Source of the DNA: Streptoalloteichus hindustanus
Lineage (GTDB): Bacteria; Actinomycetota; Actinomycetes; Mycobacteriales; Pseudonocardiaceae
Direction: 5' to 3'
NCBI RefSeq assembly: GCF_900129375.1
Contig: NZ_FQVN01000006.1
Span: 1 to 64,000 of the forward strand
Length of the DNA: 64,000 nt
Made by a program: the position numbers and the translations under genes. Within the stretch, counting starts at the first letter, position 1. Each line of letters starts with the position of its first letter. The notes beneath the pieces were generated by a model, which was given only the letters and a program-made list of their open reading frames with translations, was not told the DNA's origin and did no database searches. Positions 3,787-13,844 of this stretch are shown piece after piece.

Positions 3787-3852
3787 AGCAACGGTGTTCG
3801 TGCCGGGACCGCGCCCGCCCGCGCCCCGACGAGGGCGCGGGCGGGCGGGCGG

Positions 3853-4764
3853 TCACTGGAGGAGGGAACGCGCCTCGCCCAGGACGTCGTACTGGGGCTC
3901 CCAGGGTCCGACGTTCAGGCTGACGGCGATGTGGTCAGCGCCGGCCTCGGCGTACGCGGCGAAGCGCTCCGCGGCCTGGCGTGGGCCACCGGTCAACAGG
4001 ATGGACTCGGCGTGCTCCCGCGGAATGTGGTAGGCGTTCACGAGCGACGAGATCGCGGCGTCGGCGTCCGCGTCGCCGAGAGCGGCCATCACCCCCATCG
4101 TCACGCGGGGCGCGGGCCGTCCCCGCTCCGCGGCGAGCTCCCGCAGCCGCGCCACCTCCACGGCGAGGGTCTCGGGCGGCAGCGAGGAGGGGAACCACCC
4201 GTCGGCGTACTCCAGGACGCGGCGCTTCGCGACCCCGGAGTTGCCGCCGACCAGGATCGGCGGGACGGCCACCCCGGGCGAGAGCGTGATCACGGGCTGG
4301 TCCGGCTCCTGTGGGAGCCGGGTCGGCTCGCCGGCGATGAGCTGGGGCAGCACCGAGAGCGCCGCGTCGGTCCTGCGGCCGCGCTCCTCGGGGGGAACGC
4401 CGACCGCCTGCCAGGGCGCGAGGCCGTGCGGCGTCCCGCCCGAGCCGACGCCGAGCACCAGCCGGTCGCCGGACAGGTACTGGAGCGAGGCGGCCTGCTT
4501 GGCGACCCAGGCGACCGGGCGCAGCGGCAGGATCAGCACCCCGAAGCCGATCCGGACGCGTTCGGTCACGGCGGCGGCGGTGGCCAGGACCATGCCGCTG
4601 TGCAGCACGGGACCCTGGAACCCGGTGACGAGCTGGTCGCCGCTCCACACCGCGTCCAGGCCGACGTCCTCGGCGCGTCGCGCCGCCTCGCGGATGTACC
4701 CGTAGGGGGCGCCCGGCTGCTTGCCGAACGTGGGCAGGTGGACGCCGATCTCGATCGTGGCCAC
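3853..4764 (-). CDS. LLM-class flavin/F420-dependent oxidoreductase
   Basis: This 303-residue luciferase-fold enzyme carries DAVWSGDQLV, RVRIGFGVLILPLRP, LVLGVGSGG, and a C-terminal LTGGPRQAAERFAAYAEAGADH segment typical of the LLM superfamily. Two GTG codons compete as start: 4779 and 4764. The AAGGAG at 4771-4776 lies six bases before 4764, so 4764 is preferred. It sits 25 bases downstream of the alcohol-dehydrogenase-like gene on the same strand and is probably co-transcribed with it. Over long stretches it resembles the enzyme at 1925-2830, which points to a local duplication. The substrate is unknown. Confidence 0.88.
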   Translation of the reverse strand: MATIEIGVHLPTFGKQPGAPYGYIREAARRAEDVGLDAVWSGDQLVTGFQGPVLHSGMVLATAAAVTERVRIGFGVLILPLRPVAWVAKQAASLQYLSGDRLVLGVGSGGTPHGLAPWQAVGVPPEERGRRTDAALSVLPQLIAGEPTRLPQEPDQPVITLSPGVAVPPILVGGNSGVAKRRVLEYADGWFPSSLPPETLAVEVARLRELAAERGRPAPRVTMGVMAALGDADADAAISSLVNAYHIPREHAESILLTGGPRQAAERFAAYAEAGADHIAVSLNVGPWEPQYDVLGEARSLLQ

Positions 4765-4789
4765 GGAAATCTCCTTCACGCCGGCCGGG

Positions 4790-5758
4790 TCAGGGGAGGA
4801 GCAGGGTCTTGCCCACGGCGGCGCGCGCCTCGATCGTGGCGTGCGCGTCGGCGGCCCGCTCCAGGGGGAAGGTCTGGCCGATCACCGGCCGCAGCCGGCC
4901 GGACGCCGCCGCGTCGAGCGCGTCGACGATCAGCTGGCGGAACTCGGCGGGGCTGGGCGCCACCTGTGCCAGGCCCAGCAACCGGATTCCGCGCTCCTCG
5001 ACGTCGGGGGCGGAGGTGTCGGTCCACTGTCCACTCGCGAGGCCCGACCGCACGAACCGGCCGTTCCTGGCCACCAGGCGGAGGGCGGCGTTGCCCACCT
5101 CACCGCCGACGCCGTCGAACACGACGTCCACCCCGGCGCCCCCGGTCGCCCGGAGGACCTCGTCCGTCCACTTCGGATCCGAGTAGTTCACCGCGACCCG
5201 CGCGCCCAGATCCCGTGCCACGGCGAGCTTCCGCTCGCTGCCGGCGGCGGCGATCACGTTCGCGCCGGCGTCGACCGCGAGCTGAACCAGGAGGCTGCCG
5301 ACGCCGCCGCCCGCGGCCTCGACGAGCACCCACTCGCCCTCGGCGACGGCGGCGAGTCTGGCCAGGCCGATCGCCGTGCGCCCGTCCGCCAGCACCGCCG
5401 TCGCCACCTGGATGTCGAGCTGGTCGGGGACGGGCACGACGTCGCCGGCGTTCACCGCCACCAGCTCGGCGTAGCCGCCGGACCCTCCGGTGGTGCTGAC
5501 CACCTTCGTGCCGACCAGCGCCGGGTCGACGCCGTCGCCCACCGCGACCACGACGCCGCCCACGCCGTTGCCGGGGACGAACGGCGGTTCGGGCGTCGGG
5601 AACGGCGCGCGGCCGGCCCGGATCTGGGTCTCGACGAAGGTGATGTTGACGACGGCCACCCGGATCACGACCTGGCCGGCGCCGGGCGTCGGGTCCGGCG
5701 CCTCGCCGGGCACCAGGACGTCGGGCGCCCCGAACTCGTTCAACCGCACAACCCGCAT
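4790..5758 (-). CDS. Zinc-independent quinone oxidoreductase / MDR-type alcohol dehydrogenase
   Basis: The 322-residue medium-chain dehydrogenase/reductase has the N-terminal GroES-like half (PGAGQVVIRVAVVNI, FVPGNGVGGVVVAVGDGV) and a Rossmann half with the NADPH motif AAGGGVGSLLVQLA. The catalytic and structural zinc Cys clusters of true alcohol dehydrogenases are absent, as in the QOR (zeta-crystallin) branch, which reduces quinones or enones with NADPH. ATG 5758 has AAGGAG five bases upstream. The gene is first of a two-gene unit with the LLM oxidoreductase and diverges from a TetR gene, with two matching palindromes between them. Confidence 0.88.
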   Translation of the reverse strand: MRVVRLNEFGAPDVLVPGEAPDPTPGAGQVVIRVAVVNITFVETQIRAGRAPFPTPEPPFVPGNGVGGVVVAVGDGVDPALVGTKVVSTTGGSGGYAELVAVNAGDVVPVPDQLDIQVATAVLADGRTAIGLARLAAVAEGEWVLVEAAGGGVGSLLVQLAVDAGANVIAAAGSERKLAVARDLGARVAVNYSDPKWTDEVLRATGGAGVDVVFDGVGGEVGNAALRLVARNGRFVRSGLASGQWTDTSAPDVEERGIRLLGLAQVAPSPAEFRQLIVDALDAAASGRLRPVIGQTFPLERAADAHATIEARAAVGKTLLLP

Positions 5759-5811
5759 GGGAGCTCCTTCCCGCATGACCGCTCCGGCCTGTCCCCGGTG
5801 TGCCCACCTTC

Positions 5812-5856
5812 CGGAGCGAATCGCTCCGTTTAAACGTAGCGGAGTGATCCGCTCCG
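5812..5856. promoter_or_regulatory. Twin TetR-type operators in a divergent promoter
   Basis: Two 17-bp dyads share the arms CGGAG/CTCCG: CGGAGCGAATCGCTCCG (5812-5828, a perfect palindrome apart from its centre) and CGGAGTGATCCGCTCCG (5840-5856), with centres 28 bp apart. They occupy the short gap between the oxidoreductase gene (minus) and the TetR gene (plus). TAGGAT at 5865-5870 fits a -10 for the TetR gene. This layout suggests that the TetR represses both directions. Confidence 0.7.
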
Positions 5857-5876
5857 GTCGACGTAGGATGCGGAGT

Positions 5877-6557
5877 GTGACTGACGACGCCACCGCCGAC
5901 TGCTGCGCCGGCGCGCCGAGGGAGGGGGGCCGGCGCCGGGGGCGGCAGGCCGAGGCCGAGCTGAACGACCAGCGGGTGCTGGAGGCCGCGCGCGACGTGT
6001 TCGCGTGCGAGGGCGCCGACGCGCCGGTCTCGGCGGTCGCCAAGCGCGCGGGCGTGGGCATGGGGAGCCTCTACCGCCGCTACGGCAGCAAGGTGGAGTT
6101 GATCCAGCACCTGTGCCAGCTCTCCATGGAGCAGGCGGTCCTGGCCGCGGAGGAGGCCCTGGCGTCCACAGAGGACCCTTGGGCGGCCTTCGTCGAGTTC
6201 GTGCACCGGTGCGTGCGGGCGCGCTACGGCGCGCTCTCGCCGGTCGCCGGCACGATCCCGGTCTCGGAGGCGATGGACCGGACCTACCGTCGCAGTCGGG
6301 AGCTGCTCCAGGAGCTCGTCCAGCGAACGCAGGCCGAGGGCGGCCTGCGGCCCGACGTGAACACAGTGGACATCTCGCGGCTCATCGAGCTGTTCGGCCG
6401 CTCGTTCGGCTCACGCTGCCGGAACACCGCCGACGAGCAGGTCCAGCTCCGACTTCTCGCCCTCGCCCTGGCCGGCCTCCGCGTCACCGACGGCGACCCC
6501 CTCCCCGGCCCCAAGCCCAGCCTCGAAGACTACGAGAACCGCTGGTACCTCTCGTGA
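5877..6557 (+). CDS. TetR/AcrR family transcriptional regulator
   Basis: The 226-residue protein has a TetR DNA-binding domain at about residues 30-75 (RVLEAARDVFACEG, then VGMGSLYRRYGSKVELIQ). Its C-terminal ligand domain ends in LPGPKPSLEDYENRWYL, resembling the end of the TetR at 1134-1841. GTG 5877 is preferred over the in-frame ATG at 5868 because a TAGGAT -10 hexamer overlaps that ATG and would place the transcript start on the GTG (leaderless mRNA). It is divergent from the oxidoreductase/LLM pair and probably regulates it through the twin dyads. Confidence 0.88.
   Translation: MTDDATADCCAGAPREGGRRRGRQAEAELNDQRVLEAARDVFACEGADAPVSAVAKRAGVGMGSLYRRYGSKVELIQHLCQLSMEQAVLAAEEALASTEDPWAAFVEFVHRCVRARYGALSPVAGTIPVSEAMDRTYRRSRELLQELVQRTQAEGGLRPDVNTVDISRLIELFGRSFGSRCRNTADEQVQLRLLALALAGLRVTDGDPLPGPKPSLEDYENRWYLS
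6164..6176. repeat. Variant copy of the GTCCACWGTGGAC palindrome
   Basis: GTCCACAGAGGAC, one mismatch from the consensus, lies inside the TetR gene. It is read as TCC-ACA-GAG-GAC, the same codon phase as the other copies. Confidence 0.5.
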
Positions 6558-6713
6558 CCCCCGCGCCGTGACCCCGGCCAGCGGGACTCAGCGGATCGGC
6601 ATTCGCCTGGCTTTTCGTTCTGCGCAACGGAAAAGACGCTCGCTCGCCCCGGTTCCTGCCGACCTGGTCGCGAGTGTGTCACCAGGAAGCCGTTGTAGCC
6701 GCGTCCATTCCAG

Positions 6714-7373
6714 TCACGACCGACCGTCAATGGCCTCGTAACGACGTCGTGCCAGAGGCAGGGCGCGTCGCCAGACTGACCGCCACAGCCATCCGGGCAG
6801 CAACCGGCTCCGCTCCTCGTGCGCGACACGACCGCGAGGATGTCCCTTCCAGCCGCCGGGACCCGCGTCGTACTTGAGTCGATACTCCACCGCGCACACG
6901 TGCCGGACGCTCTTGTAGCCGTAATGCGCCGGCGCCACAAGACGAAGCGGTGCGCCCAGCTCCACCGTGAGCGGCCTTCCATCGAGGCTGTCGACCAAGA
7001 GGACGTCCTCGGCGAGAGCGTCGTCAAGCCGCAGGCAACTGCGGTATCCGTCCAGCCCGACGAACACCACCCACGCGCAACGGGGATGTGGCTTCACTTT
7101 CCCGGTCAGCCACTCGTGCGCTTCCCGGAAGGGGACGCCGCCCCACTTCAGCTCCGTGGCGCTCCACGTGGTGACGCAGTGCAGGTCGCTGAGCTGTTCC
7201 CGCCGCCCGGGCAGCCCGCTGATCGTGGCGACGTCGAACTGTGTCGGCCGGCGCACCGCTCCCGTCACCGTGACCACGGGGTGTGCGGGCACGGTCGGCA
7301 GAACGCCGGCGAACTGCGTCAGCCCGAACCTGCGGAGCGGAGCGATGGCCTGGCCTGGCGGCAACTGATCCAC
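6714..7373 (-). CDS. Molybdopterin-dependent oxidoreductase (sulfite-oxidase fold domain)
   Basis: The 219-residue protein resembles the single-domain SUOX-fold molybdoenzymes: a central LHCVTTWSATELKWGGV stretch with the probable molybdenum-ligating Cys66, followed by GLDGYRSCLRLDDALAEDVLL and a C-terminal GYKSVRHVCAVEY. No twin-arginine signal is apparent, so it is probably cytoplasmic. The GTG start 7373 has GGGAGG eight bases upstream. It is transcribed away from a TetR gene, with a perfect palindrome between. The substrate is unknown; related proteins are annotated only as oxidoreductases. Confidence 0.88.
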   Translation of the reverse strand: MDQLPPGQAIAPLRRFGLTQFAGVLPTVPAHPVVTVTGAVRRPTQFDVATISGLPGRREQLSDLHCVTTWSATELKWGGVPFREAHEWLTGKVKPHPRCAWVVFVGLDGYRSCLRLDDALAEDVLLVDSLDGRPLTVELGAPLRLVAPAHYGYKSVRHVCAVEYRLKYDAGPGGWKGHPRGRVAHEERSRLLPGWLWRSVWRRALPLARRRYEAIDGRS

Positions 7374-7404
7374 GCCGTCCGCCTCCCGTCTGTATTAGAG
7401 GGAC

Positions 7405-7416
7405 CGTTCTAGAACG
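7405..7416. promoter_or_regulatory. Perfect 12-bp palindrome, likely TetR operator
   Basis: CGTTCTAGAACG lies midway between the molybdoenzyme gene and the divergent TetR gene. It is just upstream of a TAGCAT -10 (7424-7429) that would start the TetR transcript on its GTG. The position is typical for autoregulation. Confidence 0.6.
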
Positions 7417-7436
7417 CGCAGACTAGCATCATCAGC

Positions 7437-8030
7437 GTGGCCCGACGACGCGTGCACAGCGACGACCAGATCCTCGACGCGGCCCGTGACCTCCTGGTCG
7501 CCCACGGCGCCGCGGCGGCCACCACCGGCGCCATCAGCGAGCGCAGTGGTGCCCCGGTCGGCTCGATCTACCACCATTTCGGCTCCCGCACGGCCCTCCT
7601 CGCCCGCCTCTGGACCCGAACCGTCCAGCGCTTCCAGGAGGACCTGCTCTCGGCCACCGCCGCCGCCCCTCCCGGCATCCCCCGCGCCGTCGCCGCTGCC
7701 GCCTCATCGGTCGACTTTGCCCTCACCCGCCCCGCCGACGCCCGCCTACTCCTCCTCGCGCGCCGCGACGACCTCCTCGGCTCCGACGAGGTCCCGCCCG
7801 GCACCAAGGCCACCCTCGCCACCCTCAACACGCCGGTGACCGCCCTCATCTCCCAACTCGCCACCGAGATCTACGGCTCCTCGTCCCCCGACCACCTGGA
7901 GCTGGTCACCCTCGCCGTCGTCGACCTCCCCTACGCCGTCATCCGCCGCCACCTCCTGGCCGACAACCTGACCCCCGCCCACCAAACCCTCGTCACCACC
8001 ACCACCCGCACCCTCCTCCGGTCTCGTTGA
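7437..8030 (+). CDS. TetR/AcrR family transcriptional regulator
   Basis: This 197-residue TetR protein has its DNA-binding domain at about residues 8-55 (QILDAARDLLVAHG, then APVGSIYHHFGSRTALLARL). The GTG start coincides with the transcript start predicted from TAGCAT seven bases upstream, so the mRNA is probably leaderless. It probably represses itself and the divergent molybdoenzyme gene through the 12-bp palindrome between them. The inducer is unknown. Downstream the base composition drops as the accessory island begins. Confidence 0.88.
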   Translation: MARRRVHSDDQILDAARDLLVAHGAAAATTGAISERSGAPVGSIYHHFGSRTALLARLWTRTVQRFQEDLLSATAAAPPGIPRAVAAAASSVDFALTRPADARLLLLARRDDLLGSDEVPPGTKATLATLNTPVTALISQLATEIYGSSSPDHLELVTLAVVDLPYAVIRRHLLADNLTPAHQTLVTTTTRTLLRSR

Positions 8031-8206
8031 GCTGTGCTCGTTGCGCTCGCGATATGTCACAACTAGCGCAGTTCTCATCTATCCAGGATGGCGACGCCGC
8101 CCAGTAAAGTGGGCTCTGGAGTTCGCTGCGTAAGCAATGTTGCGGGGAGTGGGCAGCCCACTTCCCCTGCACTGTGCCGATCTGAAGAACAGAATGCGGT
8201 TGAGCT

Positions 8207-9046
8207 TCAGCCGTCTTCTTGGAGCTTGGGTGGAGCTGTACGCCGGGAAATGCGCGGCATTTTTTCTCCCGGAGAACGCCTTAGCAGCTTCATTTCGCGC
8301 CCCTCTACCCAGGCGTTCCAGGATTTCAAGTAGTAGAGCAGGTGCTCCCGGGAGTCCTCACGCCTCCGGTGTGCCTTTCCGGCTGCCATGTTCAAAAGGG
8401 TGTTACGTAAGGTCAAACGTGGATCCCCGATACGGAGACCAGCGCCGGTAACTAGTCCGTCAAACCACGGCTGCTGGTCAATTTCCGGACGTTCACGAGA
8501 CGATATATACCAGCCGACGGCTGCGGCGGTAACAGTGATGCGGAACGCCTTGTTCATCGGGATGCCTTGACGTACGGCTTCCCGTATTCCGGGATGCTCG
8601 CGCAGGAGTGATAGAAGGAGTTCGTTGCTTACCACCGAACTCTGTCCGCTCCATGCGGTTTCTGGACTTGCCAAGTATAGGTGCAGACCGCGCAATGCAG
8701 GTGCCAAAAACGTGGGGTGCTCTTCGCCTACGAGGGCGAGAGCATCGCGGGCACCGCGCTTGCGTCCGGTATCCATAACCACAAACGCGGAGCGCGGAAC
8801 ATTTCGTGTCACGACAGACCGGACCGGAATGCCTGCTTTGACGATCGCCTCCAGGCGGTGCTGGCCGTCGCTTAGATGCCCGTCCTCGTCGAAGGCGATA
8901 CCTTGGTGGGTGAGCTGCCATTCGCCGCGCGTGATCTGTTGGGCCAGCTGCTGAACAAAGGTCTTGCTCAACGGCCTGTTGTGGACGTTGAGGAGGAGCC
9001 ACTGGCTAGCCAGCTCGGGAGTGATTAACTCGATCGTGCTATACAC
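8207..9046 (-). CDS. ParB/sulfiredoxin-fold DGQHRL protein, phage-like
   Basis: The 279-residue product has the core LSDGQHRLEAIVKAG (about residues 58-72) typical of ParB-N/sulfiredoxin-like phosphate-binding domains, preceded by VQQLAQQITRGEWQLTHQG and followed by a helical C-terminal half. Such proteins occur in actinophages and integrated elements, where their function is largely unassigned. GTG 9046 is chosen because GGAGG lies seven bases upstream; the longer frame to 9097 has no such site. Codon use is visibly less GC-biased than in flanking genes. Together with the gene-poor surroundings and the nearby integrase remnant, this points to horizontal origin. Confidence 0.7.
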   Translation of the reverse strand: MYSTIELITPELASQWLLLNVHNRPLSKTFVQQLAQQITRGEWQLTHQGIAFDEDGHLSDGQHRLEAIVKAGIPVRSVVTRNVPRSAFVVMDTGRKRGARDALALVGEEHPTFLAPALRGLHLYLASPETAWSGQSSVVSNELLLSLLREHPGIREAVRQGIPMNKAFRITVTAAAVGWYISSRERPEIDQQPWFDGLVTGAGLRIGDPRLTLRNTLLNMAAGKAHRRREDSREHLLYYLKSWNAWVEGREMKLLRRSPGEKMPRISRRTAPPKLQEDG

Positions 9047-10585
9047 GGTGGTACCTCCATCGCAGTGCGGCAAACCTGAGTGGCTGAGGAAGCACATCCC
9101 ACCAGAGGGTGGAGACGGTTGTCAAAAGGGTCACCAGTTGCTTTTGATGTGGTGTCAAGCAAATGGTCAGCGTTCGCTTCGGCTGCTGCTCCTGGCCTAG
9201 GGATCTTTCGCCTGAGCAACCTGGAGGAGGTGGCTCAGCTCCGCCGGGTGATCGCCGAGGGCGGGTAGATGGGGCAGTGTGAACGATTGACGCTGCCGCG
9301 GGTGATGGGCTCCTTCATGCTGGTGACGTGCGTGTTGACCTGGCAGTGGCCGGGCCGCGGTTGCCGACCACGGCTGGATCTCCTGGGCTCGCGACAGGAT
9401 GGACGCGGAGCCGTCGAGAGTGCTGTTCAAGTACGTCGCTAAGCCGCTTGGAGGTCGGCTACGCGTAGCTCGTGGCATCGGAGCTCGCCGACTGGCCAAC
9501 GTCCCACTGGCGTCCTGCACGCCCGGACGTGCTCTAGATACGGTGACTGACTGGGCTGGATCTCCTACGTTGTTGAGACCAGGACGTCCACGGTGTCGTC
9601 GTAGAAAGGGGGGAAGGCGCTCGCCCCCTACGATCGCTGTGAGAACCTTTTGGTCCTTCGGCACCCCGCGGCAGCCGGGGTTGGAGGCAGGTGGTCGAAC
9701 TCCGAAGGGCTCGTCACTCTAAAGAGATCACGTGATCATCGCCGTTGTGCGCCTCGGGATGAGCACCTACCGAATCACGGTGAACGGGTCGTCGCAGGTG
9801 CTTGGGGTCAGAGCCGGTATCCTTGAACCTGAACGACAGATCGTGGGTGTACAGCCGTAGGCCGGCGCTGTAGATCTCGTCTCGGGAGATCGGCGACGCA
9901 GCGCGCGGGCACAGTGCGGGAGCCGCGGGGCACCGCTGGGGCGGGCGACTACGAACGTCAGGTGGAGCAGGAATGCCGACTGCTGATCGACCGTGGCCTG
10001 GCGGCAGCGATCACCAGGCGATGGGAACGCCACGCTCGCTGGTCCGCCGTGCCCACCGCCCGGAGTAGCTCGGGTCCGGACGGACCTACGGCTACGGCCT
10101 TCCCCTGGGGTATCGGCCTGGTTGGCCCCGCTGGTCGCCGTTGAGGAGTGGGGCACTGGGGGCGAAGTCGCAGCTGAGAGCGGCGCACTCGTCCCGACCG
10201 TCCCAACTTCTTGGCTGTCGTTGCTGCAGAACCTTCCAGCAACGAAGAATTGCATCCGGGCTCAATTAATCGCGCTTCGCTCGCTGCGGTGCGAGCCCTT
10301 CCGGCTTGAGAGACGATCATCCACAAATCAAGGCTGTCTGATGGCGTGGATACTCATGTCATCCTCTCTTGCGCCGCCGTCATGGCTTTGACCTGCGACG
10401 ACAATCATCCTGCAGCCTCGAGAAAAGATGCTGTACGCGACTGTCGGTCGCGCGTAGGCATGTGTGTTGGTGTTGCCTCAGCTCCCTCAGATGCGGCATG
10501 ATGCTGACGTCCTGCCGCGAGGTGCAGCGACAAATGCCCCCGCGGCCGGCTCCTCATATGTAGGCCGGCTAGGAGTTTCATCCGT
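9047..10585. other. Gene-poor, lower-GC stretch of the accessory island
   Basis: No convincing gene was found in about 1.5 kb. The reading frames on both strands (for example minus 9197-9664 and 9767-10255) are short of conserved motifs, lack ribosome sites and have no third-position GC bias. Base composition is markedly lower in GC than the chromosome around it. The stretch is best read as decayed or non-coding DNA of the island. Confidence 0.6.
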
Positions 10586-10798
10586 ATGTGTCAATTTCTT
10601 CCACCTGTTCCGACCAATTACGGGCGGCCCCGGGGACGTGTCCTGGTCGTCACGGAGGTCCTGCAGGTCCGCCGCATCAACGCGCCCACCCCCGCGCTGG
10701 CCATCGTGGGAGGCACGGGATTACTCGCGGCCGAGATCGCCCGGCGGCTCCCGCCCGGATTGACCCCGCCGTCGAGGGGAGCGGGTGGCTCGTGCTGA
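10586..10798 (+). CDS. Small unidentified ORF coupled to the HTH gene
   Basis: This 70-codon frame starts at ATG 10586 with AGGAG ten bases upstream, and its stop overlaps the GTG of the next gene by seven bases. From about codon 14 onward nearly every third base is G or C, which the neighbouring non-coding DNA does not show. The translation includes PALAIVGGTGLLAAEIARRL, a hydrophobic/amphipathic stretch, but no family was recognised. The overlap suggests translational coupling to the HTH gene. It may be a real small protein or the tail of a lost gene. Confidence 0.4.
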   Translation: MCQFLPPVPTNYGRPRGRVLVVTEVLQVRRINAPTPALAIVGGTGLLAAEIARRLPPGLTPPSRGAGGSC

Positions 10799-11592
10799 CG
10801 CCCAACTCCCCCGAGCCCAGGGTGGACCTGGCAAGGCGGTTCGGACAGGAGCTGCATGACCTCCGGCGCCGCGCCCACCTGACGCCGGAGCGGATGGCGA
10901 CGCTGGTCGATTACAAGCTCAGGAGCATTTCCCACATCGAGAGCGGCCTGCACGTGCCGCGCTGGGACATCGTGGAGTGCTATCTCCGCGAGGCCCACGT
11001 GCCGGACCATCGGCACGGCGAGTACCAGATGCTGTGGGAGAAGGCTCGTGCACAGCAGCGGCAGAAGCGGAACGCCGTGCGGCAGCGGCAGGCGCGAAAG
11101 AAACACACTGTCTACACCTGCTGCCAAGCGCAGTACTCGCCCGTCGTCCTCCTGATCAAGCGCACCGCGGGGTTCTGGTCCCCGGGGACCATTAGCGTCG
11201 CTGAGTGCTGGTACTGCGACAAGGTCACAGCGCACCGCTGCTCCCCGGCGTCGGTTCCCGTAGAGCTCAGTCCCGGCGATATCGCACTCTGGCCGAACCC
11301 CGGTCAGATTGCCAGCTGGGAGGACCTGTCCCGGGCGTTACTGCAGATTAAGCAGCACATGGGCTTGTCCTACAAGGCGATCGCAGATCGAAGCCAGCTC
11401 CTCGGTGGGACGACGTTGTCCCACGGGTTGGCACACAAACTGTGTACGGCCGGTCAGGCTCCGCGGCGTTCCGCCTACGTCGCGACGTTTGTTCGCGCGT
11501 GTGGTGGCTCCGCCGCTCTCGCACGTCAGTGGTGGGACACCTGCGTACGCCTCCGCGGTTTTCGTGGGCAGGAGTATACCGAGGAACTTTGA
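10792..11592 (+). CDS. XRE-like protein with two HTH regions and a Cys-rich middle
   Basis: The 266-residue product has an N-terminal XRE-type helix-turn-helix (about residues 12-66, containing LTPERMATLVDYKLRSISHI). A basic helix with many Gln and Arg (85-104) follows. The middle segment holds cysteines at 110, 111, 139, 142 and 150, including CWYC, which could bind a metal. A second HTH-like region lies at about 174-250 (MGLSYKAIADRSQLLG). GTG 10792 is taken as start because AGGGGAG lies upstream and it overlaps the preceding small ORF. It sits in a lower-GC island and is followed by a clear terminator. A regulator of the mobile element is a guess; the exact family is not recognised. Confidence 0.65.
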   Translation: MLTPNSPEPRVDLARRFGQELHDLRRRAHLTPERMATLVDYKLRSISHIESGLHVPRWDIVECYLREAHVPDHRHGEYQMLWEKARAQQRQKRNAVRQRQARKKHTVYTCCQAQYSPVVLLIKRTAGFWSPGTISVAECWYCDKVTAHRCSPASVPVELSPGDIALWPNPGQIASWEDLSRALLQIKQHMGLSYKAIADRSQLLGGTTLSHGLAHKLCTAGQAPRRSAYVATFVRACGGSAALARQWWDTCVRLRGFRGQEYTEEL

Positions 11593-11632
11593 GGGGGAGG
11601 CTTTTGGGAACACCGCAAGCGTGCCCCCCCGA

Positions 11633-11662
11633 AACCGCCTCGGCCCTAAGGCCGGGGCGGTT
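11633..11662 (+). terminator. Intrinsic terminator after the HTH gene
   Basis: AACCGCC-TC-GGCC, a CTAA loop, then GGCC-GG-GGCGGTT form a 13-bp stem with one wobble pair, followed by the pyrimidine run CCTCTTCCC. It lies 40 bases after the HTH stop codon. Confidence 0.75.
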
Positions 11663-13187
11663 CCTCTTCCCATCTTTCGTCAGCCCCATGCCGATACCTC
11701 TTGCAGCCCCCTCACCATGGCCCTGCTGCCACTGGTGGACCGCGGGAGCGGTGATCCACAGCACGACGGTGTTGGTGGCGTTCGGGGCTGGGCAGGATGA
11801 CGGGCCATCGCAGCCCGTGACTCATCCAACGGACCCGCCCCGGGGCGAACTCGGGGTGGTCGCCGCGGTCACGAGGCGGCATTCCCAGGGCACCGTGGCT
11901 GACCAGCGTTGGAGCAGCTCGCACGGCAAATGTGAGTGGCTCGGCCCCCCAACCTCGCCGTGCTGGAGACGTTCGAGCCGGAGATGCCGGTGGAGGAGAC
12001 TGCGGGATCTACTGATCGACGAGGTCCGCGGCGCTGGTCTCGCCGCGGAGGCAAGCGAGACTCGACGCGGGATCGATTCGTGACCGACTGTTCGCCGGCT
12101 GCCGCGTCCACTTCGGAGGATCACCCGCGCACTCAGCTGTTGGACCGGCTCAAGGTGATCGACGACGTCCCCTGGAACGAGTATTGGCGATGGGGCGTCA
12201 CGGCGTGGCGTTCAGTTAGATGTTGCACCAGTACGAGGGTAAGCAGCAACATCTCCGTCGGTGACCGGCCGCCAGGTCAAGAACTACCCACGCAACGATC
12301 TCAGCGACGCCTCGAACCTCTCCACCGCGTCCTGTCCGAACCACGCTTTCCGAACACTGGTCCGGGCTGGGACGACTACCCCCACTGCGTGTGCTGATTA
12401 CCACCTGCGACGTTTGTATCTAGAAGACCAGGTCTACATGGTGGGCGAGCGGCACGAGCCGTTCAGGATCAAGCACTGGCGGAGAGGTTTGGGGTCTGAA
12501 ACCGTTGGTGCCCGTGGCAAGGACGAGGTGTGTGGCCTCGTGTCTGGTGCGGCGATGACGACCACGACGCAGGTAGAAGGACATGCGGCGGTCGTACTAC
12601 CGATGAACAGAGCCCGAGACGCCATCGCCGGTCACGATGGCGCTTCTCGTGACGGACATGGGAAAGCTGCGGGACGGCCTGTTTCGTTCGGCTTTGAGCC
12701 GCTGGGCCTTCGGCAGGGACGAAGCGAAGCTGTCTTGACTGACCAAAAAGGGAATCGGACTGTGCTGTGGCGGAACGCGGCGGAGTTCCAGCCCGCTGGG
12801 AAAGAATCCAAGGCTGTCCCTGAGATGGTGGCGGTAGTGGGCCATCGTCTGGTGGTGAATCCGGAGCTACGAACGTTGTTGTACGTGATTGGAGAAGACT
12901 GGTGGCTGGTGAGCGGGTTATCTACTTTGGTGCCTAGTACTTCAGAGCACTGTGGCCAGAACCTTCCCCGACAGGGTGGGGTTGGCTGCACCTGGCCGGC
13001 GCGGAGCCCTAGGTCGGGAGGGGCTGGACTGACAACGGGAAGACAGGGACGAGGGGGCGCTCAGGCAGCGAGGCCTGGGCGAAACGCGCGCCACGCCGAG
13101 CCCACCCCCGCTGACCGACCTCCTGAAGCGCCCACGTCCGAACGGGTGCCGTCCCGGTGGTAACTCAACACCAGGGAGCTTCCCAAG
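11663..13187. other. Gene-poor remainder of the accessory island
   Basis: About 1.5 kb has no gene that can be supported. The longest plus frame (12261-13163) has no recognisable motif, no ribosome site and irregular codon use. The stretch 12130-12215 reads as a short plausible peptide (LDRLKVIDDVPWNEYWRWG), but stops appear at once on both sides. It may be a gene relic. Composition is variable and mostly lower in GC than the chromosome. Confidence 0.55.
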
Positions 13188-13476
13188 CTCACGACTCTCC
13201 GGGCTTGGCGCAAGGCGCGGCAGATGGCCTTCGCTCCAGAGGTCGCAGCCACAGACCTGGGCTGCGTCGCCATACGACATGAGGCACGCTGGCATCTCGC
13301 TGTGGCTCAGCTCCGGCGTGCCGCCGAAGCAGGTCGCCGAGTGGGCTGGGCACTCCCTAGAGGTGCTGTTCAGGATCTACGCCCATGTGCTCAGTGGCTC
13401 CAACGACGCCGCCCGGGCGCTGGTCGAGAAGGGGCTCCAGGGGGCGTTGAACCACCCTGACATCAACACTGAGTGA
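13188..13476 (+). pseudogene. Tyrosine recombinase (integrase) C-terminal remnant, frameshifted
   Basis: Two frames together spell the end of an actinobacterial phage-type integrase. Frame one (13188 to about 13262) gives LRAWRKARQMAFAPEVAATD. After a one-base shift near 13262, frame two continues PYDMRHAGISLWLSSGVPP, AEWAGHS, and LFRIYAHVLSG, ending at TGA 13476. The catalytic Arg (of MRH), His (of AGHS) and Tyr (of IYAH) are all visible, but the N-terminal two thirds are missing and the frame is broken, so it cannot be functional. It points at the 3' end of tRNA-Arg(CCG) 190 bases away, the usual place for an integrase beside its attachment site. Confidence 0.85.
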
Positions 13477-13615
13477 CGTGACCGAGATCACTGCTGATGG
13501 GCCGTGGTTCGGGGCCTCAGCCGGGTTCGGCGGAATTTCGTCGGCACACCCTCGGCACAGACGCCCGAAAACGGCCGGGTTTCGCCGGTGTCAGCCGGAC
13601 AGGGCTGGAGATAGC

Positions 13616-13659
13616 AGAAGACCCGCTGGCCGGCATTGCTGCTGGTCAGCGGGTCTTCT
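13616..13659. terminator. Bidirectional terminator between integrase remnant and tRNA-Arg
   Basis: AGAAGACCCGCTG (13616-13628) and CAGCGGGTCTTCT (13647-13659) form a perfect 13-bp stem with an 18-base loop. It lies five bases beyond the 3' CCA end of the tRNA gene and would end transcripts arriving from either side. Confidence 0.8.
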
Positions 13660-13663
13660 GTGG

Positions 13664-13738
13664 TGGTGCCCCCGGCAGGATTCGAACCTGCGCACCCGCC
13701 TCCGGAGGGCGGTGCTCTATCCCCTGAGCTACGGGGGC
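13664..13738 (-). tRNA. tRNA-Arg (anticodon CCG)
   Basis: Read on the minus strand, the acceptor arms GCCCCCG/CGGGGGC pair over seven bases. The D arm GCTCAGGGGATAGAGC, an anticodon arm CCGCC-CTCCGGA-GGCGG with anticodon CCG, and a T arm containing GGTTCGAATCC follow, with an encoded CCA. The integrase remnant and gene-poor island abut its 3' end, so this tRNA gene was probably used as an integration site. Confidence 0.95.
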
Positions 13739-13844
13739 CCGTCTCGCGATCTCTCGCGGCGACGTGGAGAAGCTTAGCGCATGTTCGGAGGTGCTTCGCA
13801 CACCCCCCTGGTTCGGGGGCCCGGCTCGTCCCTAACGTGACGAG

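What the first reader, a model, noticed from the sequence alone, without database searches (positions are those of the whole stretch)
8031..13738. Decayed integrative element at tRNA-Arg(CCG)
A 5.6-kb lower-GC, gene-poor island ends at the 3' end of tRNA-Arg(CCG). It holds a frameshifted integrase C-terminus with R, H and Y still visible, a ParB/DGQHRL phage-like protein and a double-HTH regulator. The layout matches actinomycete integrative elements or prophages that use tRNA genes, now largely erased (established pattern plus inference). No second att copy was spotted by eye.
Basis: partly seen in the sequence, partly recalled or inferred. Interest (0 to 1): 0.52.

Follow-up and report, generated by a model that had tools for sequence, protein, structure and literature searches.

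The report
Wrecked mobile element at tRNA-Arg gene
A 5.5-kb stretch of foreign, mostly ruined DNA sits against a tRNA-Arg gene of an actinomycete; it is the remains of a mobile element of a known kind, of interest mainly because one gene, related to genes kept beside anti-phage systems, has stayed intact in the wreck.

Summary
Confirmed and, in kind, ordinary. Window 8031-13553 is 63.6% GC against 72.9% (sd 1.4) elsewhere in the window and has almost no normal coding sequence. It ends at tRNA-Arg(CCG). Next to the tRNA lies about the last three quarters of a tyrosine integrase, broken into several frames with an internal loss. Intact integrases of this type sit against the same tRNA in other genomes of the family, in two of them inside elements closed by a second copy of 50-52 bases of the tRNA 3' end. 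No second copy exists here, so normal excision is not possible. The other held genome of the genus lacks the island but keeps about 110 bp of the integrase-side end, with its hairpin; this suggests insertion before the two diverged. Two ORFs remain whole: an HTH regulator and a ParB-fold DGQHRL protein. The latter's nearest relatives stand beside type I restriction genes in Streptomyces. Decayed AICEs and accretion at tRNA-Arg are in print (PMC9513070). Possibly new: the defence-linked ParB-fold family, and the element's hairpin outliving the element.

The parts
13664..13738 (-). tRNA-Arg(CCG), the integration target
   Evidence: ARAGORN; Rfam RF00005
13664..13715 (-). inferred att core: last 52 bases of the tRNA gene
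   Evidence: repeated at the far end of related elements: G010 50 bp (13666-13715) 100%, G048 52 bp 98%; also a G022 copy of 55 bp 96%. No second copy in this window
13614..13661 (.). hairpin between the integrase remnant and the tRNA (22 pairs here, 19 in G001), likely a terminator brought by the element
   Evidence: the stem differences between G000 and G001 keep pairing; nhmmer with a model of four integrase-bearing elements; role inferred
13541..13563 (.). direct repeat TCGGCACA-CCC-TCGGCACA, inferred arm-type site of the integrase
   Evidence: present with a few changes beside the integrases of G142 and G022, in part of G048 and G010; role inferred
12601..13476 (+). tyrosine integrase pseudogene: matches run from about residue 110-137 of intact proteins to their end, in several frames, with about 90 residues missing near 12720-12819
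   Evidence: blastx; three-frame reading; PHROG
10792..11592 (+). HTH regulator ORF (266 aa from a likely GTG at 10792; the open frame begins at 10588)
   Evidence: HTH_31 1.9e-12; coding periodicity 0.34 over 10700-11299 (0.14 after that) and GC3 0.81
8207..9046 (-). intact ParB/sulfiredoxin-fold DGQHRL gene (279 aa from a likely GTG at 9046 with GGAGG at 9054-9058; the open frame begins at 9097)
   Evidence: phrog_5931; alignment; dN/dS; fold
9245..9346 (-). possible scrap of a further gene: 34 residues, 59% identical to a 529-aa ORF of unknown function about 0.9 kb from a partial tRNA copy in G022
   Evidence: blastx E 8.7e-5, nothing in the reversed control; the ORF has no Pfam match over its cut-off and no PHROG match
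9098..10585 (.). eroded DNA without recognisable genes, apart from the scrap at 9245-9346
11593..12600 (.). eroded DNA; its right part is where the integrase N-terminus would be expected
8031..13553 (.). whole low-GC island; left edge set by composition (stop codon of a TetR gene with normal GC), right edge where homology with G001 resumes

Best explanation
[quoted passage not shown] The element supplied the 3' end of the tRNA gene, a hairpin just beyond it and a convergent integrase gene. Afterwards the far end with the second att copy was lost, the integrase decayed by frameshifts and an internal deletion, and the middle eroded beyond recognition. A ParB-fold DGQHRL gene and an HTH gene stayed open; the ParB-fold gene bears the mark of purifying selection. 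Shown: composition, broken integrase, same tRNA and same integrase type in other elements, no second att copy, absence of the island in the relative. Inferred: order of events, terminator role of the hairpin, arm-site role of the repeat, AICE type.
For: GC and coding loss. Integrase remnant. DNA match of 75% from 13025 to 13739 (integrase end, junction and tRNA) with G142. Repeats of 50 and 52 bp of the tRNA 3' end closing elements of about 20.7 and 13.5 kb at the same tRNA in G010 and G048; both carry an FtsK/SpoIIIE-like gene (G048 Pfam; G010 phrog_1358 E 1.2e-17) and G048 also a GntR gene, an AICE-like set. Several partial copies of this tRNA in G022. Island absent from G001, whose homology stops at window 6852 and resumes at 13553. 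A model built only from four integrase-bearing elements finds the junction in G000 (E 1.4e-16) and G001 (E 8.3e-8), and in none of the opposite flanks or shuffles.
Against: No second att copy, so the left end is fixed only by composition. No tra, rep or virion gene recognised in the island. No clean empty site in the genus: G001 has about 890 bp of unrelated filler. Only two genomes of the genus are held. The ParB-fold gene's GC3 of 65%, against 76-91% in 26 homologous ORFs, could mean a separate arrival. Weaker junction matches also lie beside four tRNA-Arg genes with no integrase detected near them, so the junction might in part be host sequence.
Confidence: 0.9

Rival explanations
1. The remains are those of a prophage, not of a conjugative element.
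For: 86 phage records hold a tblastn match to the ParB-fold protein, many of them phages of Mycobacterium, Rhodococcus and Gordonia (26.7-32.2% identity in the 20 listed); tyrosine integrases and tRNA 3' ends are used by both kinds (recalled).
Against: No virion gene match among the ORFs scanned. The two closed elements with this integrase type that were looked at (G010, G048) carry FtsK/SpoIIIE-like genes. The ParB-fold copy is far closer to chromosomal Streptomyces genes (72-77%) than to any phage copy (under 60%).
Confidence: 0.25
2. The island is a composite: an old integrase stump, with the ParB-fold and HTH genes brought by later, separate events at a hot spot (accretion).
For: The integrase is badly broken while the ParB-fold gene shows no excess of changes at conserved sites (5 lone changes of 109, against 3, 4 and 7 in three rows of like divergence). 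Several partial tRNA copies in G022 point to accretion at this tRNA, and accretion at a tRNA-Arg is published for Streptomyces (PMC9513070, passages). The ParB-fold gene's GC3 stands apart.
Against: No internal att copies; selection on one gene alone explains different decay.
Confidence: 0.35
3. The 13553-13663 junction with its hairpin is the host's own tRNA flank, which elements captured into attP, so G001 need never have held the element.
For: Matches to the junction model lie beside tRNA-Arg genes without a detected integrase nearby in G038 (E 1.4e-9), G024, G036 and G020 (E 1.5e-4 to 2e-3).
Against: In G022 the junction lies at an integrase about 112 kb from the full-length tRNA match, next to only 17 bases of tRNA 3'-end sequence, while the full-length tRNA has another flank. 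22 of 30 tRNA flanks show no match to the model at E up to 10 (two of the 30 flanks were only 24 and 320 bp long).
Confidence: 0.25
4. Not a mobile element, merely a variable AT-richer intergenic stretch.
For: No second att; few genes.
Against: Integrase remnant in the right place and orientation; sporadic ParB-fold gene; 5.5 kb; GC more than six standard deviations off.
Confidence: 0.03

Closest known systems
Decayed AICEs (DAICEs) and accretion in Streptomyces, PMC9513070 (passages and section 14 read)
   Same: partial integrase, leftover cargo, a tRNA-Arg hot spot with an old remnant shared between strains
   Different: the remnants with partial integrases shown in section 14 keep both direct repeats and sit in another gene; here the far repeat is gone and no tra or rep gene can be recognised
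   Same: same tRNA, convergent integrase of the same type, similar junction with hairpin
   Different: closed by two att copies with open integrase genes; no match to the ParB-fold gene in the stretches read (none in the G010 genome)
phrog_5931 proteins of phages, and chromosomal relatives in defence loci
   Same: ParB/sulfiredoxin-like N-terminal domain with DGQHRL and a helical C-terminal part
   Different: here alone in a dead element; no trace of restriction partners
DndB / DGQHR domain (TIGR03187/PF14072; passages in PMC4619093 and PMC12704722; DndB also in a search listing, PMC4507180)
   Same: DGQHR signature, ParB/Srx relation, location beside DNA modification or restriction genes
   Different: no Pfam or NCBIfam match at E up to 1, so likeness only, not membership

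Membership tests
tRNA-targeted integrative element (general) | integrase gene adjacent to the 3' end of a tRNA gene | tested here: met
   broken integrase 12601-13476, 187 bp from the tRNA
tRNA-targeted integrative element (general) | direct repeat of the tRNA 3' end at the far end | tested here: not met
   no copy in 6300-13600 above shuffles, expected of a decayed end; present in the G010 and G048 elements
tRNA-targeted integrative element (general) | sporadic presence among relatives | tested here: met
   absent in G001; ParB-fold gene in 11 of 149 other family genomes
AICE | FtsK/TraB-like translocase gene | tested here: not met
   blastx of the island against ORFs from G010, G048, G022, G142 and G115 stretches gives only integrase and junction matches, plus 34 residues at 9245-9346 to an ORF of unknown function
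AICE | replication initiator gene | tested here: inconclusive
   no match in the island; candidate rep ORFs of the reference elements had themselves no Pfam or PHROG match
prophage | virion genes | tested here: inconclusive
   five ORFs were scanned against PHROGs: integrase, phrog_5931 and weak regulator or unknown matches only
ParB/sulfiredoxin fold | N-terminal ParB/Srx domain | tested here: met
   the first 12 rows are ParB, Noc, PadC and Srx structures, Z 5.0-6.4, rmsd 3.0-5.3 A over 80-93 residues within model residues 8-125, unrelated rows at 2.8; phrog_12305 ParB-like at E 0.0026. Caution: Z under 8 is middling by the tool's own note, and Foldseek alone had no match at E up to 0.001
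DndB | match to the DGQHR/DndB family model | tested here: not met
   no Pfam or NCBIfam family at E up to 1 for this protein

The most novel reading that the evidence does not exclude
Two linked readings. (1) The intact gene belongs to a little-noticed family of ParB-fold DGQHRL proteins that act as DndB-like nucleotide-binding regulators of unrelated restriction/defence modules: in 19 of 26 relatives fetched it is transcribed away from a restriction or helicase-nuclease gene on its upstream side. Here it has outlived both its partner and its element and may still act on its own, for instance by holding down or countering restriction. (2) The integrase-side hairpin that the element gave to tRNA-Arg(CCG) has become the tRNA's only nearby terminator and is therefore kept by selection after the element is gone, in both genomes of this genus and perhaps in several others.
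Probability: 0.25. Interest if true: 0.55.

Novelty: new member of a known kind. Interest (0 to 1): 0.3.

Why it matters
As an element it is one more dead AICE-like insertion. It matters a little more as an example of what survives decay: one cargo gene of a defence-linked family that bears the mark of purifying selection, and the element end that may serve the host tRNA. If the ParB-fold family proves to regulate defence modules, the Streptomyces loci would offer ready test cases.

Tried and rejected
Remnants of the restriction/AIPR or helicase/GmrSD neighbours of the ParB-fold relatives in 6000-13800: none at E up to 0.5; the same search finds the ParB-fold gene 27 times, and a reversed control gives nothing. 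Homologues of the eroded stretch 9098-10790: 18 of 149 other family genomes match at E up to 1e-3, only over 28-92 bp (one more such match in the own genome). The stretch 11593-13480: 52 of 149 other genomes match, mostly over the conserved integrase end; some short matches elsewhere in it were not followed up. Close relatives of the HTH ORF: 42 of 149 other family genomes match at E up to 1e-3, but only at 24-41% identity; none confirmed in viral contigs, none in phages, one weak plasmid match. The small ORF 10586-10798 overlapping the HTH start: 8 of 149 other genomes, at best E 3.9e-5, inside other long frames; not pursued. ParB-fold protein in viral contigs: 6 loci at 27-48% identity, not examined further. 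Foldseek against PDB: no match at E up to 0.001; the second look gave the ParB/Srx rows. PADLOC: no model for the ParB-fold protein at E up to 0.01. Second att copy in G001: none above shuffles. A first blastn test of the junction found it only in G000 and G001 of 30 tRNA loci and used an integrase set read on one strand; it was replaced by the model search with 30 integrases. The ParB-fold copies of L105 (a stop in the frame) and L111 (partly out of frame) were left out of the tree and of the constraint count; the count also left out L112, L113 and L064-L067 as too distant. Literature: four searches; these listings showed no paper on phrog_5931 as a defence regulator, which is not proof of absence.
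Full report
Observation. Window 8031-13553 has 63.6% GC, against a mean of 72.9% (sd 1.4, minimum 69.4%) for 190 windows of the same size outside it, and no script-called ORF with GC3 above 0.8, while such ORFs cover 77% of the rest. The genes on either side (a TetR gene ending at 8030, a hydrolase/SDR-like ORF from 13845) have GC3 0.91 and 0.93. The right end is tRNA-Arg(CCG), 13664-13738 on the minus strand. The window starts at base 1 of its contig, but a left flank syntenic with G001 (3833-6852) lies between the contig end and the island, so the island's left end is in view.

Integrase. The ORF 13279-13476 matches PHROG integrases (E 3.5e-7). Against intact integrases from the same family of genomes, matches run from 12601 to 13461 in several frames; about 90 residues are missing between 12720 and 12819, and the first 110-137 residues were not found. 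The gene points at the tRNA and is broken. The DNA matches G142 at 75% from 13025 to 13739, that is through the integrase end, the junction and the tRNA, and G022 at 74.6% over 13175-13680. Integrases of this type were found in 46 of 100 family genomes at E up to 1e-30; the window's own remnant does not reach that threshold.

What a closed one looks like. In G010, 50 bases of the tRNA 3' end are repeated exactly about 20.7 kb away; in G048, 52 bases are repeated at 98% about 13.5 kb away. The G048 element holds an integrase, an FtsK/SpoIIIE protein and a GntR regulator; the G010 element has an FtsK/SpoIIIE-like protein by PHROG (E 1.2e-17) though not by Pfam. This is the set expected of an actinomycete integrative and conjugative element (recalled definition). 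In G022 a full-length tRNA match and three partial copies lie within about 220 kb, which suggests accretion. The window has no second copy, so excision by the normal route is not possible.

The relative. Only one other genome of the genus is held (G001). It matches the window up to 6852 and again from 13553 on, with about 890 bp of other sequence between, which includes two copies of a CRISPR-repeat-like palindrome. It has no match to the ParB-fold gene, and of 6500-8060 (the end of the molybdopterin-oxidoreductase-domain gene and the TetR gene) only 6601-6852 matches there, plus a 54-bp match on another contig. It is therefore not a clean empty site. It keeps the 13553-13663 segment at 80.5% identity. 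A profile built only from four integrase-bearing elements (G142, G022, G048, G010; the last is found by construction) matches G000 at E 1.4e-16 and G001 at E 8.3e-8; in all, 8 of 30 tRNA 3' flanks, 0 of the opposite flanks and no shuffled sequence gave a match on the element's strand (one further weak hit is the reverse strand of the G010 hairpin). In G022 the segment lies at the integrase and not at the full-length tRNA, so it travels with the element. Together this suggests that insertion preceded the G000/G001 split.

Hairpin. 13614-13661 folds into a 22-pair hairpin, G001 into 19 pairs; the stem differences between the two keep pairing, among them one A-T to G-C change, one G-T to A-T change and one inserted pair. 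With two sequences this is suggestive only. tRNA-Arg genes without this junction have hairpins of their own (five looked at). Matches to the junction model without a tyrosine integrase found near them occur in G038, G024, G036 and G020 (E 1.4e-9 to 2e-3); the weaker ones may be chance likeness of terminators. In G009 the integrase beside such a junction carries stop codons, a second decayed element of the kind.

The surviving ParB-fold gene. ORF 8207-9097, with a likely GTG start at 9046 and GGAGG seven bases before it. It matches phrog_5931 (E 1.2e-59). Its predicted structure (mean pLDDT 84.5) aligns within residues 8-125 with ParB, Noc, PadC and sulfiredoxin, Z 5.0-6.4 in the first 12 rows, a middling score. 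tblastn or six-frame matches occur in 11 of 149 other family genomes, 86 phage records and 18 plasmid records, in the last two always under 60% identity. The closest relatives found are four Streptomyces copies (72-77% identity), with which it forms one clade (support 100/99). These four stand beside type I methyltransferase genes and an AIPR/AbiU-like gene. Of 31 loci examined, 17 share a GmrSD-like gene (15 of all 31 a helicase with an MTES_1575 nuclease domain), 4 the restriction/AIPR set and 1 (G126) Druantia-like, UvrD and type IIG genes: 22 of 31 in all; the other 9 showed no shared set. Clusters rest on script-called ORFs, and domain searches were made on representatives only; four neighbours of the remaining loci (in L064, L066 and L110) had no PADLOC match. 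In 19 of the 26 loci the gene runs away from the restriction or helicase gene upstream of it. No trace of these partners was found in the window. dN/dS against L090 is 0.155/1.63, about 0.1, with silent sites near saturation, and lone changes at otherwise invariant sites number 5 of 109, like rows of similar divergence (4, 7 and 3): no sign of relaxed constraint. Its GC3 of 0.65 is below the 0.76-0.91 of 26 homologous ORFs, which I cannot explain well; a lower-GC donor or drift at silent sites are the options.

A further scrap. 9245-9346 (minus strand) encodes 34 residues 59% identical to a 529-aa ORF beside a partial tRNA copy in G022 (E 8.7e-5; no match in the reversed control). That ORF has no Pfam match over its cut-off and no PHROG match. 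It may be the remains of another element gene.

How it most likely works. It no longer works as a mobile element: the integrase is broken and one att site is lost. The hairpin probably still ends the tRNA transcript (inferred). The ParB-fold protein is probably made and, by likeness to DndB (an ATP-dependent repressor of the dnd operon according to passages of PMC12704722) and by its position beside restriction genes in relatives, is most likely a nucleotide-binding regulator of a defence module that is now missing (inferred, about 0.3).

Comparison with print. PMC9513070 (passages and section 14 read) describes AICE decay with partial integrases, leftover cargo and direct repeats, and accretion with a remnant at a tRNA-Arg. 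PMC3218068 (passages) reports most tyrosine-recombinase AICEs in tRNA 3' ends. PMC4619093 (passages) links DGQHR, GmrS and the ParB/Srx fold. The find is therefore a new member of a known kind.

Noticed in passing
L190 (own genome, contig C32) 5942-10886: tRNA-Arg(CCT) with a near-copy (33-34 bp, 94% to the query tRNA) of its 3' end about 4.9 kb away; GC between them is 65-68% against 70-77% outside. No Pfam integrase in the 5 ORFs scanned: probably a second small island of the same kind.
   Followed up: partly
L031 15764-15840 (relative G001): Two exact copies of CCCCGCGTGCGCGGGG, 61 bp apart, in the filler that replaces the island: look like remains of a type I-E CRISPR array (type recalled).
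   Followed up: no
17 of the loci L092-L111 (Streptomyces and Actinacidiphila): Recurring set: UvrD-like protein, about 2000-aa helicase with MTES_1575 nuclease domain, ParB-fold DGQHRL protein, GmrSD-like protein with a 6-O-methylguanine methyltransferase DNA-binding domain; possibly one defence system. Domains read on L099 only.
   Followed up: partly
G009 C4:463952-464979: Integrase with stop codons next to a tRNA-Arg-like gene (92% to the query) and an element-type junction: another decayed element.
   Followed up: partly
window 6714-7373 and L031 15392-15642: Of the molybdopterin-oxidoreductase-domain gene left of the island only the end has a match in the relative G001, as if the loss of the island there took part of this gene too.
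   Followed up: partly
G022 C1:4134831-4357127: Full-length tRNA-Arg(CCG) match and three partial copies over about 220 kb: looks like a long accretion array.
   Followed up: no
window 9245-9346: 34-residue match (59%) to a 529-aa ORF of unknown function beside a partial tRNA copy in G022.
   Followed up: partly
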